64,000 bases of DNA from Rhizoclosmatium globosum (Eukaryota; Chytridiomycota; Chytridiomycetes; Chytridiales; Chytriomycetaceae): assembly GCA_002104985.1 (NCBI GenBank), contig MCGO01000036.1, positions 1 through 64,000 of the forward strand. The letters run 5' to 3'. The position numbers were made by a program, and so were the translations under genes. Positions within the stretch are counted from its first letter, which is position 1. Every line of letters begins with the position of its first letter. This document shows positions 20,997 to 31,575 of this stretch, piece after piece. The notes beneath the pieces are model-generated. The model was not told the origin of the DNA, did no database searches, and saw only the letters and a program-made list of their open reading frames with translations.

Positions 20997-21994
20997 TCAA
21001 AGAGTCTGGTCAAAAGGAAGAACCCCCCTACAATTACTTGACCCACATAAACAACGTATCCTATCTCCTCTATCATCCGTCTCTTCCTCTACCAGTCCCA
21101 TTGCATCTCCATAATCAAAACTCAATTCCTCCCCAGCCTCAATATCACGTCCCGCAAACAACGCAGCAGATGGAACCAACGAATTAACCCTGACAGTCCG
21201 AAAATACAGGTTGGGCGAACAGGAATGGTTAATGAATCGTGCTGCGTTTCCAAACTTTGATGGATCGATGTTCGTTCGATATGTTTTCGAGTTACTAGTT
21301 TCAGCGGGTTAGTGATACAGTACAAGTACAATAATAAGAGGAACGTACGTGTGTTCTTTGACACAGATGATATAGTTGGGAAGCTTCATTTCGCGTTGTA
21401 TCGCCCACCGTCTCCTTGCTTCATCGGCTCGAATGATTTCTCCAGCTACCAAAAAGTTCCCTAATTAATCCCCAACACGCGACGTTGCTAAATAAATTTC
21501 GTTACCATATTCCATAACAAACTGTCCCTTCTCAATCGCATTGTCGGAAACGAGAGCAAACCCCTTTCCCTCAGTTTCCACAACAGTAAACGGTCGAGTT
21601 ATTCCCTTTCCCACAACTCGATTAAAGCATTCTAATGAACATGAGCAGTTTATATTGCATTCAAAGATGGGACTTGATTCAGGAAAGGTTACGTCCAAGC
21701 AACCTGGTTTATCTCTGTGTCCAGTTTCGTACTAGTCAGCAAACACAAATCAATTTAGTAACAGATAACTGACATTCGATACGCTTGCCCTCTTTCTGCA
21801 AGACAACTGCAAATGGCAGCATTGATAGTATCTCCGCAACTTCCCTCACAACAGCAGCCCTCATAATCGCTAGACTCCCCCAGCGACTCCCCACCAAGTA
21901 ACGTGTTTCTTGCTCGATATGTGAATCCATCAAGTGCATATGAGGACTTGATCATTACTTTGGTTGGCTCCGTCCCATTCGACACATCTCTCAT
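20997..21994 (-). CDS. SET-domain histone lysine methyltransferase
   Basis: There are four exons starting at 21994. The pre-SET part is cysteine-rich (CCCEGSCGD, CSCL, then CNINCSCSLEC). The SET domain has its key motifs in order: GKGFALVSDNAIEKGQFVMEYAGEII, then KFGNAARFINHSCSPNL (the NHSC motif that binds cofactor) and ELSFDYGD. A post-SET stretch, CLCGSSNCRGVLPF, ends the protein. Pre-SET, SET and post-SET together indicate the SUV39/Clr4 or SETMAR class, which methylates histone H3, commonly at lysine 9. No chromodomain lies upstream. The first junction, after QAYRM, is off by one base, consistent with a missing G next to the donor. The catalytic core is intact. Confidence 0.88.
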
Positions 21995-22163
21995 TTGGAA
22001 TAAATAAATAAATAATATTAAATCATATAAAAGAACACTTTATTATCTAAGACATGTGAGGACCAAAAAAACAAAACAAATAACAACTTTGACTTGGATC
22101 AAAAATGCAACGTGCATAGAGCTAAACAAAAAACAAAACAAAAACAAACGAATGTTATCATCA

Positions 22164-25100
22164 TCATCCTTCAATCACAACAACATCTCCATGCTGCTGT
22201 TCCTCCTCCTGAGCAGTAGCCGCAGCAGCACCACCTTCCCCTTCATCAATCACTAACCACTTGGGTACCAAATGCCACGGCGTCTCAATCGCAGCCTCCA
22301 TCACGTTCTCAAATGCAGCAGCTAATTGGTCCACTTTTGGACTATCCTCAGTTATTCCTGAATCGTAAGCAAGTGGCTTGAAACTACTTTTCCTTCGATT
22401 GGTTTGTGGTGCGGTGGGTGCAACATAGTCGGAATGCAAGGACGAGGAAACGCTTCCCCGTTTCTTTATCCTGTTATTGTTTGTTGGGGATGCCGCAGTT
22501 GGGACTGCGGAGGTTGTTCGTCGGGATGGAGTGAGAGGGCGATCACGAAGAATGTGCTCTTCGTCACTGAGGAGTGGTGGTGTTGAAAGGTGGGATCGGT
22601 GGGAAGAAGATGACTCCGATGCACTGTCATCGATTTGAACTGGGGAAGTGATTGCAGCAGGTGCTTGGGCAGTCAAGGTGGATGGAACTGAGTTTCTTTG
22701 TGGGATACCAGCAAGGAAGGTTGGCTTGATTTCTTGTCGCAAAGTTTCGTCCGCAATGGAAATCGAGTGCCGCCTGGATCGGTTGAAAGTTGGAGCTGTA
22801 ACTGCTGGGCGAGTGTCAAGAGACTTGCATCGTCGGCCAGTTTTCTTGATTGAAGATGCGTTCTTGTCTGATACAGCAGCGGGTGGAAGGACTCTCCGTG
22901 AGGGCCTCTCAACAGCCTGAACTGGAGCCGGAATTGGTACTTGCACTGGAGCTATAAAACATAAATCAGAACCCTCAAACATTCCAAAATAAAGACTCAC
23001 CTTTCACTTCCTCATCAAACTCAACAACAGATTCAACGTGAATACTCATGCTAGAATCAGGTCTTGGATGCAACAACGAAGTCGGCCTCTTCTTAATAAC
23101 AGACGCAGGTCTTGCAGGTCGAATGAAACTAGAAGGTCGCTCCTTCTTTCCTCCAGCAGTCGCTGAAGCAAGGGTAACAGATGCAGGAGCCGGTTCACTC
23201 TTTTGCCACTTCTTGCCATCGAAATCAGTCGTCTCAAACAAAGTCTCAGTTGTGCTGTTTGCAACCTGCAAAGAAGCTTCCTCCTCCTCAGGTACGAGAT
23301 CCGCAATTGCTTGGAAAATGTTGGTGATGGGCGTAAACCACGATGAAGAAGCTTTTGGCTTGACTTGAGAAGGTGGATTTGGTCTAACTGGAGGGTTATT
23401 CGAGACGTCAAACATGGCCATCTCCTCCTCCTCTTCTACAGCAGACCCCGTCAACGCCGCAGTGAACCAGTTGCTCGATGCTTTTGGCTTAACGTTATTT
23501 GGGGGAATAGGCTTCTTCTTTTCTTCATCATCAACAGCAGCATTGAACCACGACGACGAAGCCGTGGGTCTGGTATATGGCTGCTCTTGCTGCTGCTGCT
23601 CTGCAATCGGACCCGTCGCGAACCACGACAACGAGTTCATTTTCTTGACTTGGTCCTTTGGATCTGGTTTCAAAGCTTCGGCTGGTGTTGGTTGCGGAGG
23701 GGGCACTGGCGTCTTGGCCGCCTCCACAATCGGCTTCAAGATGCCACTAAAAAACCCCGACGCCTCCGTAACAGGCTCTGGAAGAGGGACTTTGGCGAAA
23801 TCACCAAACCCCGACTGTTGAGTTGGACTTGTCACCACCTGTTCAGCAATTTTGGCGCCATTGCCCTCCCATACTGCAGTTTGTTTCAACGAAGATGACT
23901 GCTTCAACGAAGTCGAGAGCTTTGGAATCGCTCGAGTCGAAGACTTGACACTTCCCTGCCACATCACACTCTCCAAATCCTCATCCATCACAAACGCTTG
24001 GGAAGGCTTCACAGATGCAACTTCGTCTCCAGAATCTTCTTCTCCATGGCCACTAAAGACACTCTTGGCTTTACGCGTAGTAGACTTTTTCGACTTGACA
24101 GTTCCCTTCCAGACAATCGATTCCGCGTCGTCCATAGGTGAGTCCTTGTACGACTCAGCCTGACTCTCGTTGATAGTGTTTCCACGTCTGGATTTCACAG
24201 GACCTCGGTACACAATCGATTCAGCGTCATCACCAGCATACGATCCACCAGCCTGACTCTTTGCAGCCTGAGTAGTCGACTTCTTACTCTTGACGTTACC
24301 ACGCCACACGATCGATTCAGCATCTTCAAGAGCGGCATCTTGTGGGTTACTCGCAAGATCCTGCGCCATCTTCTTGGTTCCCTTCTTGGATTTAACAGAT
24401 CCTTTCCACATGATAGACTCAGCATCAGCCAAAAAGTCCTGCTCCTGTTGCTGGATCTGTGCAGCATTCGTCACTGGTGCTTTCTTTGACTTTACAACTC
24501 CAGTGAAAATGACACTTTCCGGGCTACCAACAATCAGCTGCTCCGGAGTAAGTTGTGCGACAGTTGGTTTCGCGCTTCCCTTCAACGACCTCACATTTCC
24601 TGTCCAAACGACAGACTCCAATTCAGGGTCAGCCACAACAGCTTGAGCAGTCGAAGTGGTATCAGGCACAACAGGTTTAACAGCGCCAGACCACAAGATA
24701 TTATTCAATTCGCCATCCTGGGTGAGAATCGGGGCTTCCGCTGTTTTCTTCTCCTCTTGAGCAGGCTGAGGTTGATGCCACAAAAGTCGACTTGACGGTC
24801 GATCAATGCGACTCGAAGGTCTCTCTACCTGTGGCACAAACGATTCCACGGTAGTCAAGTCAATACCAGAATCATGGTTCCCCTTCATAGGAGTAACAGC
24901 TAAAAAACCCCGAAATTCATCAGTAAACGAAACCCACCCCCTTAAACCAAAAAAAAAAGGGATACTCACACAACCCTCCAAGTCCTTCCAACTGTACATA
25001 ATCAAGTCCCCGATCAACAACATCAGCAACCTGCTGCTGCTGTTCTTGCTGCAACTCACCCGCTTCAACAACAGGACTCTTCACATCCCCATTCACACTC

Positions 25101-28100
25101 GACATACTCTCCACATCCGTCAACGCAATCATATCAATGGTATCCCCCGCACCCCTCCTCCCAATCGCGCCTCCAATAGCATGAATCTCCCCGCCAAGCC
25201 CTTCAATCTGCGCATCAAGGTAATCATCATCTTCAGGGATCCGTTCCAAAAAGCCTCGGCTGAATGTACTCGACGACATGGGTCGCGGCGGTGGTGGGGG
25301 GAACGGGACCGGACTGCTGTAACTGCTTCGTCGAGAGATGCTTTGAATCAGTTCGTCCTCCTCGGTATCGTCGCTGCTGTCAATGTCAAGGATACTGATA
25401 CTGTTGCGCTTGTTGAAGGATTCGTGGTATGCAAGTACAGGCCGTGTGAGGGACATTGTGCTCCATCGGTGTCGAGCTGATCCCTTTCGAGCCCGGCGTG
25501 CAGTTGGGGGAAGCAAAACGTTCAATTCGTCTTCAGTGCTTTGCTCTGAAGACGCGTCTTCATCTGACGACGTGTACGCGCTTTCATACGTAGATTCTCG
25601 GAACCCAACAACCCGTTGATGTCCAACTTGCTGTTGCTGCACCTGCTGCTGCTGTTGCTGCTGAGAATTAGACGAAACCGACCCAACATGTTCCACAACC
25701 TTCAAAATATCCGCTATAAAAAAACCCCATTAGATCCCCTCCCCCCTTAAAAAAAACAAATCTCACCTCTCCACCACGCATCCGCCTCATCAATTTCCCG
25801 TTCCGCATCAACATCACTATCAAACTCCGAATCACTCTCCCACACCCGCTTCACAGGCTTCACCCCAACCCCACTCTCAAGCCCCTCCCCGCCGTTCATA
25901 ATAAGCGGCGTCCAGGGACTCTCAAGGAGTCGCATAACACCCATGACTTCCGCTTCGATTTCAAGACCCACCATGCTTCCCTGTCGTGTAATGTACTCGA
26001 GTGCGACAAGGCGGCGTCTCGGCCGTCTCTTGCTTCCCGTTCAAGTCGCTTCACACGGTCTTCAAGGCCGGTGCTTTTGAGTGTGGCGACTTCAGCTGTG
26101 CGTTGATGTAATTCGTTTTTGACGGTGGCGATATGTGAGCGAGTGACAGTGAGTTCGGATTTGAGGCGGTGTGTGAGTTGGGATTGGGTGCTGAGGAGAG
26201 CATGAGCGCGTTCAAGTTGGGCTCGAAGAGTTGCAATTGTGGAGGCGGCGGTGGGATCGTGAGGGGTTGTGGAGTCTTGGAAGGGGCTGAGATTGCGTGG
26301 TTTTTGGGTTGTTGATTCGATTTCTTCATCTGCGTCTGCTGTGGTTGATGTGACAAGTGGCGTGACTGGTCTTGCAGCTCGAAGATGGGAAGGGGTTTGG
26401 AGGAGGACTGATGAGGTGGATGCAAGAACTGGAGTTGATGAACGGCGGAATGGTTCTTTCGCCGCCCGAGGTGGAGGTTTATAGTTGTTGAGAGGAAATT
26501 GCTTTGAGTTTGACGCCGTTGATGATGTAGTAATGCCGCCTGCTTAGTTTGTTAGGTACGAATTCGACTGATCAAAAACCCTCACCATCAATCTCAAACA
26601 CTCGCACGCATCCATCTAGACTTGCACTGTATAACCGACCAGTAGAGAAACTGGTCTCACCTTCAACAGGTTTCTCTACAGAAACCCACAAAATGCCAGC
26701 AGAGTGGTTATCATACTTCCGCACTATATTCCCACTCTTGACATCCCACTCATAAATGATTGCATCGTCACCAGCAGAAAACACTTGACCGGGCAAAAGA
26801 CCGATCGAAACGGTCCGTACTGCTGATGGTTTGTTTCCATAGTTGTTGTTGGTGTTTGAATCACCAGTACCAAAAAGGGTTTGACTTGCTGAGGATAAGA
26901 TAAAGGAGGCTCGTCGTTGGACTGTACCAACAACGGCATCGACTAAAGCAGGAAGTGTTGATGGTTCGTTGTTTGCATTGGATGATGAAGGGTTTAGCGC
27001 AGCTACCGCATCCCTGGAGTCTGTTGCTGCTGCTGATCGTGCTTCTGATGGATGCACATACTCTGCCTCTCCTTCTTCGCTTTCTGATGATGGTACTGTT
27101 GAATCTTTTGCTGGTGCCGCGATGCCTATATTTCAATATTAGTGGGCTGTGTTCTTGAGTCAAGAATGCAGTAAGGGAAATTCATGGAACTTGTGCTTCC
27201 ATAAAATGTCATTCACTGCTCTAACCCTTCTTCTTTGATGTTCGCTGCACTCACAGTTCGTTTTTTTGATGCTCGCTCCGCTCGCTGTTCCTTCCAACCA
27301 CTCCTTCCTCAACATAATCGACTATTTTTGTCGTCCGCATTCCGCCTTTTTCAACATTCCACAGCTCGTCCTTTTCTCTCGCTCAGTAATAATCTCATTT
27401 GTAAGCTCACCTAGAACCTTAACACACTTCCCAGTCTGAACATTCCAAACCCTGACACCACCATCCCGGGCCCCCGCATAGACGACATTAATACCCGCGG
27501 AGACTGAAAGAATATCAATAGAACCGTAAGGGTCTTTGAGGGTACGAATGCATTCATTTGTAGTGGTATCCCAAACCCTAACATCCGAGTCCATTCCCGC
27601 GGAAAAGAGCGACTGCGAATGAATAGCCAGACACAGGATAGGGCGAGAGTGGCCGGAGAGAGAGTGGATGCGTTTCCCGACATTCAAGTCCCAGATGTGA
27701 ATGAGTTTATCGAAGGAGGCGGTGTAGATGATGCAGTTAGGGGCAGCAGCAGAACTAGTTGAAGCGGGTTGGGACAGGGAAGCCAGGGACGGCGATCGTT
27801 TCAAAGCAGAGTTATTGTTGGTGTTGTTGTTGTTGTTGTTGTTGGTGTTCAAAGAGGGAGTCGGATCAAAGACAATCGCAGAGACGGCGGCTGTGTGGGC
27901 GCGCAACGAGTGGATTCGCTGGAACGCAGTGTCCCTTGTCGACCAGACAACCAACGAACCGTCGTCGGCGGCTGAGACCAAGAGCGAGTGCGTGCGCGAG
28001 TGAGTGAGGGCCGACACAGAGACCTGGTTGTTGTTGTCCTTTGCACTTGTACTTGTTGTAGCACTAGTAGCACCACCACCACCACCACTACCACTAATAA

Positions 28101-28296
28101 CTCCGTTAAACGACGATGGAAGCAGCGCCGCCTTGGCCGAATGCGTCAATGTCCGCTCAAACGACGATCCAACTTCTCGAACTACGACCAGTCCGTCCCG
28201 CGATCCTACACACACAAACTCTCGATTCCCTAACACTAATGCACAGGCGGAGGTGGTCCCGGAGGAGGCGACGGCGAGTGTCTCTGACACCTGCAT
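22164..28296 (-). CDS. Giant WD40 / coiled-coil / motif-repeat protein
   Basis: There are six exons (28296-27411, 27125-26586, 26542-25767, 25713-24970, 24899-23001, 22951-22164), about 1,877 residues. Seven WD40 repeats fill the first 475 or so: blades end in VVVRE, VVWS, IHIWDL, VRVWD, VRVWN, IYEWD and VRVFE. A coiled coil follows (about 575-650: LRAQLERAHALL, LEDRVKRLEREAR). Next come acidic and serine-rich stretches with a poly-Q run. Exon 5 holds eight or nine copies of a short motif of the type ESIVWKGSVKSKK, then four SSWF motifs. The tail is proline/serine-rich and ends QHGDVVVIEG. I know no protein with this layout. One base seems missing in exon 3 near 26020; otherwise the frame is clean. 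It looks like a scaffold; the partners are unknown. Confidence 0.82.
23290..23645 (-). repeat. Four SSWF-type motifs inside the giant WD40 gene
   Basis: Four spaced copies read NSLSWFATG, ASSSWFNAAV, ASSNWFTAAL and ASSSWFTPIT. Acidic stretches follow several copies and VKPKA precedes two of them. The spacing is 30-45 residues. This is a repeated short linear motif, not a folded domain. Confidence 0.8.
23850..24720 (-). repeat. Tandem W-x-G-x-VKS protein repeats
   Basis: Eight clear and one weak copy are spaced about 25-40 residues apart. Examples are ESVVWTGNVRS, ESVIFTGVVKSKK, ESIMWKGSVKSKK, ESIVWRGNVKSKK, ESIVYRGPVKSRR, ESIVWKGTVKSKK and ESVMWQGSVKS. The consensus is acidic-x-E-S-I/V-V/M-W/Y/F-x-G-x-V-K-S-K/R. 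The copies sit in disordered linker sequence. The DNA is not a simple microsatellite, so selection on the protein motif is implied. Confidence 0.9.
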
Positions 28297-29182: not shown

Positions 29183-31575
29183 ATGTCAGGTTGCCTCCAA
29201 CTGAGCGCCAATTCCGTGTGTGGTAAGGGCCCCCTTGACCAAGTAACCACGCTCTCCACCAACTAAAAGCAACAACCAAGGCCCCACCTTTGCCGGTGTG
29301 TACGTTCAAGCGCCGAGTGGAAGCTTGTTTGGCACCGAGGCAGCGTTCAATTCGTTCGTGGCATCCGCGACAAACGAGTGTTCAAGTGGCAGTGGACAAA
29401 GTGCATTTGGCGTGTCGATTGTGTGTTCGCAGGTGGCTGTGGCGGCGTCGTGTGGACCGCAGCCATTTGCAGTGGCCCTGTGTGATCAACAGTGCTCGGC
29501 GGCTGTTGCTTCGCTCAAGAGTGCTGGGTGCGTGCGTGTTATTTGTTGATTGATTCACGTGGTTGTTAGGGTACTCTACTCTGAAGGAAAGAGGGAAGAG
29601 TACAATAGTAGGATCCATGAGAGAGATGCACATCACACCCAACAACCACAACCCTACTATGTGTACAACATGATCCATACTAACACTTGAACAGATGCGA
29701 TGCCCTCGCTGCAACCCGCCAAGCTTCCTGTGCTGCCTTTTCGCCACTTGTTTCTACGGCTGGTTCGTGTTGGAAAGGCGCGGACTCCGACAAGAACCAG
29801 TGTGGGTTCTCGGATCTGTCAAAGGCGTGTGTTCTCCCTGGGAACAAGGACATTGAATGCTGCTCAAATTGGCTCAAGAATAATCCATTGACTGCTACTT
29901 TGGTGGTGGTACCTGTCACTACAACAAGTGCTGTTACAACTACTGCTGCTGCTGCTATTATTCCACCCTCTAATATCATCGCTCCCTCTGTTGTTCCTCC
30001 TTCTGTTACTGCTCCTTTGGCTCCTTCCACCACCTCAGCCTTGATTCTACAGACCTCATCAAATATTCTAACAGTCACATCAAACGTTTCTTCCACAGCA
30101 ACAACGAATGCAAGCGCTACATCCAATTCCGATTCCGATTCACGTCTGAGTACAGGTGCAATTGCAGGAATTATTGTGGGCAGTCTTGCTTTTCTCCTTC
30201 TCCTCCTTCTCGTTGCCTGGCTTGCTATTCGCAAAGAACGAAATCCTGGAAAGACTACTTCCACCGCAAGTCAAGTTACTCCTGCTTCCTCCATGTTCAC
30301 CCGTTCCATCACACTCAATCGTAAAGGCGACAAGGAAGAGTCGATTTTCAAGGAAGCAAGCACTCCTCTCAACGTTGCAGATTCTCGCCCCTCCACTTCT
30401 TCCTCCCAACATCCACGCCGTTCCTCTGTTGACCTCGAAAAAGGATTCATTATAGCTACCTCTAATGGCCTCATTCCTCCAACCCCATCAACACCGATTC
30501 CCCCAATCCCAACAACCGAAACTACAAATGAACCAGAGAATCTCTATCGAGTCATTCACAACTACCGCCCCAACCTTCCAGATGAATTACGTCTAGTGAT
30601 GGGCGCCACAGTCATCATCCACAAAACGTACCCTGACGGGTGGGCCGACGGCACTGACGTCTTGACCTCCCAAACAGGCGTTCTTCCTCTCTCCTGTATC
30701 GCGCCCCTCCAAACTCCACTCCCACCAACACAAGCAACATCCCCCATCCGCGTAAACCGCCGCAAATCATCCCTCTCCCTCCTCCAATCCCAAGCCGGTC
30801 AATCTCAAGACCCATCCACAACAACCGAATCATCCCTCCCCACAACCCTAAAACATCTAACAGCCATCCGCGCATACACCCCTGTCCGCCCCGACGAACT
30901 CAAACTCACAGTCGGACTCCCCATCATTCTTCTCAAGACATTTGAAGACGACTGGGGAAAAGGATACATCCCCTCCACAGGCGTCGTAGGAATGTTCCCC
31001 CTCTCATTCGTCATCCGTCGCGACAACAACACCCCAACCACCACAGACGCACCACCCACAACCACCACCTCAACACCCCACCCCCCAACAACAACACCTC
31101 CAGGAGACCTAAGCAGCAGAACAAGCAGTCTAAACGGCATGCGCGAAGAATACCACTCCCAAACCCGCGTCGAAAGCGTCAAATCCCCCACTCTCCCTCC
31201 AACCTCAACCTCAACCTCCACCCCCACCGGTGCACCACCCCCTCTCCTAAACATAACCGAAGAAGAAGACCCCCACACTTCCACCACACTCCTCCGCCCA
31301 TCAACAACCCAAAGCACACACATCCTCTCAACAGAAGGCTTCCTACGCATGCGCGTTGTGCATTCGTACGTCGCACAGGCAGACGACGAGTTGACGCTTG
31401 TTCATGGAATGGACGTTTTGCTGTTGAAGCAGTTTATGGATGGGTGGGGGAGAGGGCAGAATGTGGAGACGGGGAGAGTTGGGATGTAAGTTGCTGATTT
31501 TTGAAGTTAATGTATTGCTAATTTTTGGTTTTTTTTCGTGTTTGATATAGGTTCCCGATGGTTTGTGTTGAGTAA
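29183..31575 (+). CDS. Single-pass membrane protein with three SH3 domains
   Basis: There are four exons (29183-29222, 29281-29527, 29695-31485, 31551-31575) with an intact frame of 700 residues. The ectodomain is cysteine-rich (MSGCLQLSANSVCG, TNECSSG, SIVCSQ, CGPQPF, LCDQQCS, then KGADSDKNQCGFSDLSKAC and ECCSNWL) and is followed by a Thr/Ser-rich stalk. One membrane helix follows (IAGIIVGSLAFLLLLLLVAWLAI). The inside part carries three SH3 domains (YRVIHNYRPNLPDELRL...GWADG; AIRAYTPVRPDELKL...DDWGKGY; MRVVHSYVAQADDELTL...DGWGRGQ) separated by Ser/Pro/Thr-rich linkers. No signal peptide is seen at this ATG, so a short 5' exon may be missing. The layout suggests a wall or surface sensor that recruits proline-rich partners; this is inference. 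Confidence 0.85.

What the first reader, a model, noticed from the sequence alone, without database searches (positions are those of the whole stretch)
22164..28296. Novel giant scaffold: WD40 propeller, coiled coil, motif arrays
A single gene joins a seven-blade WD40 region, a coiled coil, acidic/Ser-rich linkers and two separate arrays of short motifs. The exon structure is clean over 6.1 kb. I know no described family with this order. The layout is that of an adaptor that oligomerises and gathers many copies of a partner.
Basis: partly seen in the sequence, partly recalled or inferred. Interest (0 to 1): 0.75.

Follow-up and report, generated by a model that had tools for sequence, protein, structure and literature searches.

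The report
Chytrid-specific multivalent WD40 scaffold protein
A single large gene in a pond fungus makes a protein of an apparently undescribed family, shared by many chytrids, that looks like a hub: a propeller, a long helix and a floppy tail carrying many copies of one short binding motif.

Summary
The window is Rhizoclosmatium globosum (BCR33DRAFT_369463 equals the tail of my model). Six exons encode about 1.85-1.88 kaa: seven WD40 repeats, a long helix ending in LLESPWTPL, acidic linkers, eight motif units (A-E-S-[IV]-[VM]-W-x-G-x-V-K-S), four [SN]WF sites and a conserved C-tail. The exon structure is not clean: the frame breaks in exon 3 near 26,010 and the public protein starts just after it. 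Nine relatives read through there, and 12 of 18 carry WD40 and helix in one protein, so this is one gene.

Named relatives fall in Chytridiales, Cladochytriales, Rhizophlyctidales and Spizellomycetales; none outside chytrids was found in three capped searches. No Pfam family was met outside the propeller. The array looks constrained: 8 of 8 units pair in order with Siphonaria, codons are randomised while residues are kept, and the exact W-form core occurs nowhere else in the 56.9 Mb genome. Farther genera pair less well, and four members have no strict units.

Best reading: a self-associating, multivalent scaffold with a private short linear motif. Self-association and partner are inferred. 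A new family of a known kind of protein.

The parts
22164..28296 (-). whole gene, start codon to stop codon
   Evidence: tblastn of Siphonaria P0003 and Chytriomyces P0005 begins at residue 1 = 28296
27411..28296 (-). exon 1: WD40 blades 1-5 (blade count by eye)
26586..27125 (-). exon 2: Ser-rich insert, then WD40 blades 6-7 (blade count by eye)
   Evidence: P0002, P0003, P0005 match
25767..26539 (-). exon 3: linker, long helix (about 26237 to 25929), LLESPWTPL (25929-25903), WESDSEFDSD (25845-25813 with the V before it), WW; holds the frame break near 26007-26010
   Evidence: P0002, P0003, P0005 continuous here
24970..25713 (-). exon 4: acidic, Ser-containing, Gln-rich linker
   Evidence: identical in public protein P0001
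23001..24899 (-). exon 5: motif array 1, GFGDF site, array 2
23941..24708 (-). array 1: eight units, seven of them strict, core S-[IV]-[VIM]-[WFY]-x-G-x-V-[KR]-S in the strict ones; spacing of the seven strict units 33, 33, 34, 32, 33, 50 residues
23797..23814 (-). single SGFGDF site; GFGD[FHN]A in relatives that have it
23281..23634 (-). array 2: four [SN]WF sites (first SLSWF at residue 1379), the last followed by TPITNIFQAIADLVP
   Evidence: outer coordinates worked out from the residue-to-base positions
22164..22951 (-). exon 6: basic/Ser-containing tail and conserved C-terminal segment DQLAAAFENVMEAAIETPWHLVPKWL (22331-22254)

Best explanation
It is a scaffold protein of a family restricted, as far as seen, to chytrid fungi. 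The propeller docks one partner (inferred from its fold). The roughly 105-residue helix makes the protein self-associate as a coiled coil (inferred). The disordered tail of members with an array displays three to thirteen copies per chain of one short linear motif (E-S-h-h-W/F-x-G-x-V-K/R-S) that binds one kind of globular partner with avidity (inferred). The invariant SW site and the C-terminal helix add a further conserved contact, perhaps to a membrane or a second partner (inferred). Shown by sequence: one gene, conserved order, array conserved at protein level. Shown only by prediction on a relative: propeller, helix and disorder. Not known: partner, location, process.
For: One gene: WD40 and helix lie in one predicted protein in 12 of 18 relatives (11 by Pfam calls, plus P0006 by alignment). 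The 18 include two records each for Physocladia and Cladochytrium. Invariant columns over the 17 aligned relatives include the L-x-x-P-x-T-P-L region, W-x-x-D-x-x-x-D-S, a W of the WW pair and the S-W site. Array: 75 strict units in 17 sequences, window included (P0001, P0002, P0007 left out); 13 of 17 have three or more, 4 have none. Window against Siphonaria: 8 of 8 units are reciprocal best matches in the same order. Among identical array residues the codon is the same in 53 of 173 comparisons, 0.306 against 0.326 expected from the gene's codon usage, so the copies are old at DNA level and kept at protein level. DNA pattern for the exact W-form core: 5 hits in 56.9 Mb, all in this gene, reversed control 0 (units with F or Y cannot match this pattern). 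AlphaFold of Phlyctochytrium P0010: propeller blocks mostly 89-97, last one 82; helix 368-481 about 70-87; array region below 50. Four of seven helices tested peak at a 3.5-residue period.
Against: No partner, localisation or expression data. Best period is 3.6-3.65 in the three closer relatives tested, with 42, 43 and 115 of 1000 shuffles reaching the observed power; in the other four 0, 13, 34 and 66 of 1000 do. P0015 (Cladochytrium), P0016, P0017 and P0019 have no strict array units, so the array is not needed by the whole family. Unit pairing weakens with distance: Podochytrium 8 of 8 reciprocal, but units 2 and 8 cross; Physocladia 4, Chytriomyces MP71 4, C. hyalinus 3, Dinochytrium 3, Phlyctochytrium 1 of 8. 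Four proteins expected to share the fusion or not labelled partial lack it or the propeller: P0012, P0017 and P0018 have no WD40. AlphaFold shows no confident docking of the array; the SSWF helix there is below pLDDT 50.
Confidence: 0.5

Rival explanations
1. The array does not recruit a partner: the alternating acidic-aromatic-basic units are stickers that drive self-association or a condensate, possibly by unit-to-unit beta pairing or by docking on the propeller of another copy.
For: Each unit runs acidic (D-A-E), hydrophobic/aromatic (h-h-W), then basic (V-K-S-K-K) in a region predicted disordered. Unit number is elastic: 3 to 11 strict, up to 13 by the looser expression.
Against: Position-specific residues (S after K/R in 64 of 75, E in 62 of 75, D before it in 55 of 75; V in 73 of 75 and G in all are partly or wholly set by the search expression) and ordered one-to-one unit pairing with Siphonaria look more specific than sticker composition needs. 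No confident docking in the AlphaFold model, which is weak evidence.
Confidence: 0.25
2. The gene is a microtubule or centriole/basal-body protein of the POC1 (Pix) or NEDD1 type: WD40 plus coiled coil at the zoospore centriole, with the basic array segments binding microtubules.
For: WD40 then coiled coil is the Pix order, and Pix was found in the chytrid Batrachochytrium (passages of PMC2582488); chytrids keep NEDD1 (passage of PMC12659703). Basic K-S-K-K segments follow most units.
Against: In Pix the coil lies near the C-terminus (passage); here about 1,200 residues follow. No family over its cut-off outside the propeller. Relatives were found only in chytrids although cilia are widespread (capped). 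NEDD1 itself was not tested.
Confidence: 0.15
3. Two genes, as the public annotation implies: a WD40 gene (exons 1, 2 and part of 3) and a separate tail gene starting at MVGLEIEAEV.
For: P0001 starts there and the frame breaks just upstream.
Against: P0002 of the same genus and P0003, P0005, P0008, P0009, P0010, P0011, P0013 and P0019 read through in one predicted protein.
Confidence: 0.05

Closest known systems
EDC4 / Ge-1 (mRNA decapping scaffold)
   Same: N-terminal WD40 propeller, low-complexity linker, extended coiled coil; tetramers assemble into megadalton oligomers and are proposed as a multivalent platform (passages of PMC13103063).
   Different: EDC4 ends with its helical region; here the helix is followed by a long disordered tail with a motif array. 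No Ge1_WD40 match at this gene and no EDC4 C-terminal family.
POC1 / Pix centriolar proteins
   Same: Seven WD40 repeats followed by a coiled coil; present in a chytrid (passages of PMC2582488).
   Different: Pix has its coil near the C-terminus (passage). No long tail or motif array in Pix (recalled).
Coronin
   Same: N-terminal propeller then coiled coil (recalled).
   Different: The coronin N-terminal model DUF1899 hits other contigs of this genome, not this gene.
Katanin p80
   Same: N-terminal WD40 and a helical C-terminal part (recalled).
   Different: con80 was not seen in the seven members scanned and is found on another contig of this genome.

Membership tests
WD40 beta-propeller proteins | WD40 repeats forming a propeller | tested here: met
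   PF00400 4.6e-17 in the window protein; AlphaFold of relative P0010: 27 strands in residues 8-274; PDB matches of P0009 by sequence and of the P0010 model by fold
EDC4 / Ge-1 | Ge1_WD40 model over cut-off | tested here: not met
   Own genome: one match below the cut-off, on C390, none at C290
EDC4 / Ge-1 | C-terminal EDC4 helical domain | tested here: not met
   No such family up to E 1 in seven members without called WD40, P0001 of this gene among them
POC1 / Pix | conserved coiled coil near the C-terminus | tested here: not met
   Helix lies mid-protein with about 1,200 residues after it; definition from passages of PMC2582488; Pix itself was not aligned
Coronin | DUF1899 N-terminal segment | tested here: not met
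   5 matches, on C2, C275 and C209
Katanin p80 | con80 domain | tested here: not met
   1 match, on C410
LIR/AIM (Atg8 ligand) array | [WFY]-x-x-[ILV] core (recalled) | tested here: not met
   2 of 75 units
RVxF (PP1 ligand) array | basic residue before [VI]-x-[WF] (recalled) | tested here: not met
   0 of 75 units
Gamma-ear (GAE) ligand FG[PDE][FWYLM] (recalled) | aromatic or L/M at position 4 of FGDx | tested here: inconclusive
   FGDF in the window and 6 of the 13 relatives with a GFGD site, FGDH or FGDN in the other 7; 5 of 18 relatives have no GFGD
NEDD1 | gamma-tubulin-binding C-terminal part (recalled) | not tested
   no NEDD1 model or sequence was run
Oligomeric scaffold | self-association through the helix | not testable with these tools
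   Pro-free helix in seven relatives; heptad power mixed

The most novel reading that the evidence does not exclude
A hub protein shared across the chytrids: a coiled-coil propeller scaffold whose tail carries a private linear motif, found in one gene only, that grew from few copies to more than ten in some genera and recruits a matching, still unknown chytrid adaptor, organising a structure special to zoosporic fungi.
Probability: 0.3. Interest if true: 0.62.

Novelty: new variant of a known kind. Interest (0 to 1): 0.42.

Why it matters
Few clade-specific chytrid proteins come with a testable mechanism (my judgement, not a searched claim). This family's tail is single copy in the window's genome at the thresholds used, it occurs in genera of four orders, and it offers a defined motif of about 11 residues that can be used directly as bait. 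It also shows that a model chytrid carries this gene split in its public annotation, which could hide it from transcript and proteome work.

Tried and rejected
Intron across the frame break: stop-free GT/GC-AG options of 30-160 nt within 26180-25900 were listed. The GT-AG choice I used as working model drops 25 residues that P0002, P0003 and P0005 have, so I read it as a break inside an exon. Whether it is an assembly error or real cannot be told from the sequence. Known linear motifs LIR and RVxF were rejected for the array. GFGDF as a gamma-ear ligand is not upheld across the family. Tau-like or WH2-like readings were considered by eye only and dropped. Pfam matches in the non-propeller proteins (N-glycanase_C, Prefoldin_3, Nucleoprot-TPR, COX2, DUF3584, HMMR_N, PRCC, TMF_TATA_bd, YopE_N) are all below cut-off and differ between members; NCBIfam gave only sub-cut-off matches. 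Rfam and tRNA scans of the window: no match. PDB sequence search with P0017: nothing below E 0.5. Papers: no hit for SPPG_01949 or BCR33DRAFT_369463; no description of the family seen in the listings, nor in the passages of PMC13358043, PMC8887899, PMC12659703, PMC13103063, PMC2582488; no paper was read whole and supplements were not available. One structure job and one fold search were used; the 50 fold matches shown are WD40 propellers, natural or designed.

Full report
What it is. The window is contig C290 of a genome of 56.9 Mb in 420 contigs. The gene's public protein is BCR33DRAFT_369463 of Rhizoclosmatium globosum, an aquatic saprotroph (passage of PMC8887899).

Gene model. Five introns with GT-AG ends separate six exons. 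The public protein P0001 equals residues 640-1851 of my model, so the last three introns agree with it. Exons 1-3 are supported by tblastn of Siphonaria P0003, Chytriomyces P0005 and R. hyalinum P0002; P0002 skips a stretch at the start of exon 3 that Siphonaria partly has. Inside exon 3, near 26,007-26,010, matches of these three continue in another frame. Intact copies exist in relatives. The public model starts just downstream, so it is a fragment. My working protein of 1851 aa passes the break by a doubtful 74-nt intron and so lacks 25 residues.

Is it one gene? Three searches gave 19 proteins, one of them the window's own (in each only the 7,984, 7,980 and 7,996 candidates sharing most words were scored). 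Of the 18 others, 11 carry WD40 Pfam calls, and P0006 shows the last blades in the alignment. Fusion of propeller and helix is therefore usual in the family, though Spizellomyces remains open. P0002 lacks most of array 1 in its predicted protein (1 strict unit); whether that is a gene-model error was not tested.

Distribution. Looked-up hits fall in Chytridiales, Cladochytriales, Rhizophlyctidales and Spizellomycetales, with Blyttiomyces unplaced within Chytridiomycetes. In the own genome the array exon gave one match at E 10 or better. The helix query P0017 gave two matches in this gene and four weak ones elsewhere, E 0.3 to 3. The propeller has many generic WD40 relatives: P0009 gave 48 matches at 1e-10, one of them in this gene, with 35 of 431 candidates scored.

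Anatomy. AlphaFold of Phlyctochytrium P0010, with 17 sequences, gives a propeller at residues 8-275, one helix at 368-481 ending at LLESPWTPL, and disorder elsewhere except short helices at 884-893 (SWF site, below pLDDT 50), 958-980 and 1087-1109 (47-75). This model is of a relative; the window protein itself was not folded. The helix has no proline in the seven members tested. Its best period is 3.5 residues in P0009, P0010, P0017 and P0019, and 3.6-3.65 in P0002, P0003 and P0005, which are closer to the window.

Array 1. The strict motif occurs 7 times in the window, plus one looser first unit. Over 17 sequences there are 75 strict units: W in 54, F in 19, Y in 2; E in 62; S in 60 and, after K/R, in 64 (some positions are set by the search expression). 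Shuffled proteins give 0 to 0.005 on average. The eight window units match Siphonaria units 1, 2, 3, 4, 6, 7, 8, 9 as reciprocal best pairs. Podochytrium also gives 8 of 8 but units 2 and 8 cross; Physocladia gives 4, Chytriomyces MP71 4, C. hyalinus 3, Dinochytrium 3, Phlyctochytrium 1 of 8. Codons among copies are as mixed as codon usage predicts. The exact W-form DNA pattern is found only here in the genome. Rhizophlyctis and Borealophlyctis show short runs like DIESVLRPAAV, possibly a W-less older form; this is by eye and by one loose expression.

Array 2. An S-W-[FL] site is present in every one of the 19 proteins: once in P0005 and P0008-P0019. Counting [SN]W[FL], it occurs four times in the proteins of Rhizoclosmatium, Siphonaria, Podochytrium and Physocladia. 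So array 2 is a local expansion, from one to four, of a site kept by the whole family.

How it works. Inference from anatomy: propeller docks, helix associates, tail presents many similar ligands. Among the proteins compared, EDC4 works most alike (passages of PMC13103063), but membership is not met. POC1/Pix, coronin and katanin p80 are not met either. The partner is unknown and should be sought with the motif as bait.

Verdict. The new facts are its conservation, the constraint on the array, its apparent restriction to chytrids, and the split public annotation. WD40-coiled-coil scaffolds as a kind are known; no description of this family turned up in Pfam or in the literature searches.

Noticed in passing
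window 20997-22039, minus strand: A SET-domain gene lies just downstream: SET PF00856 1e-14 in one open stretch and a Pre-SET match below its cut-off in the next; a Cys-rich post-SET-like end is seen by eye. Probably a histone methyltransferase.
   Followed up: partly
window 26007-26010: Reading frame changes within exon 3, and the public protein of this gene starts just after it; either an assembly slip or a real change.
   Followed up: partly
P0005 and P0008 (Chytriomyces): Array 1 is enlarged (11 and 10 strict units) and W is largely replaced by F in its middle, unlike the window.
   Followed up: partly
window 29190-30500, plus strand: A divergent neighbour reads by eye as Cys-rich then Ser/Thr-rich with a long hydrophobic stretch, like a membrane-anchored surface protein.
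   Followed up: no
P0006 and P0007 (Physocladia obscura), P0014 and P0015 (Cladochytrium tenue): Two distinct family proteins are recorded for each of these species, perhaps alleles or duplications.
   Followed up: no
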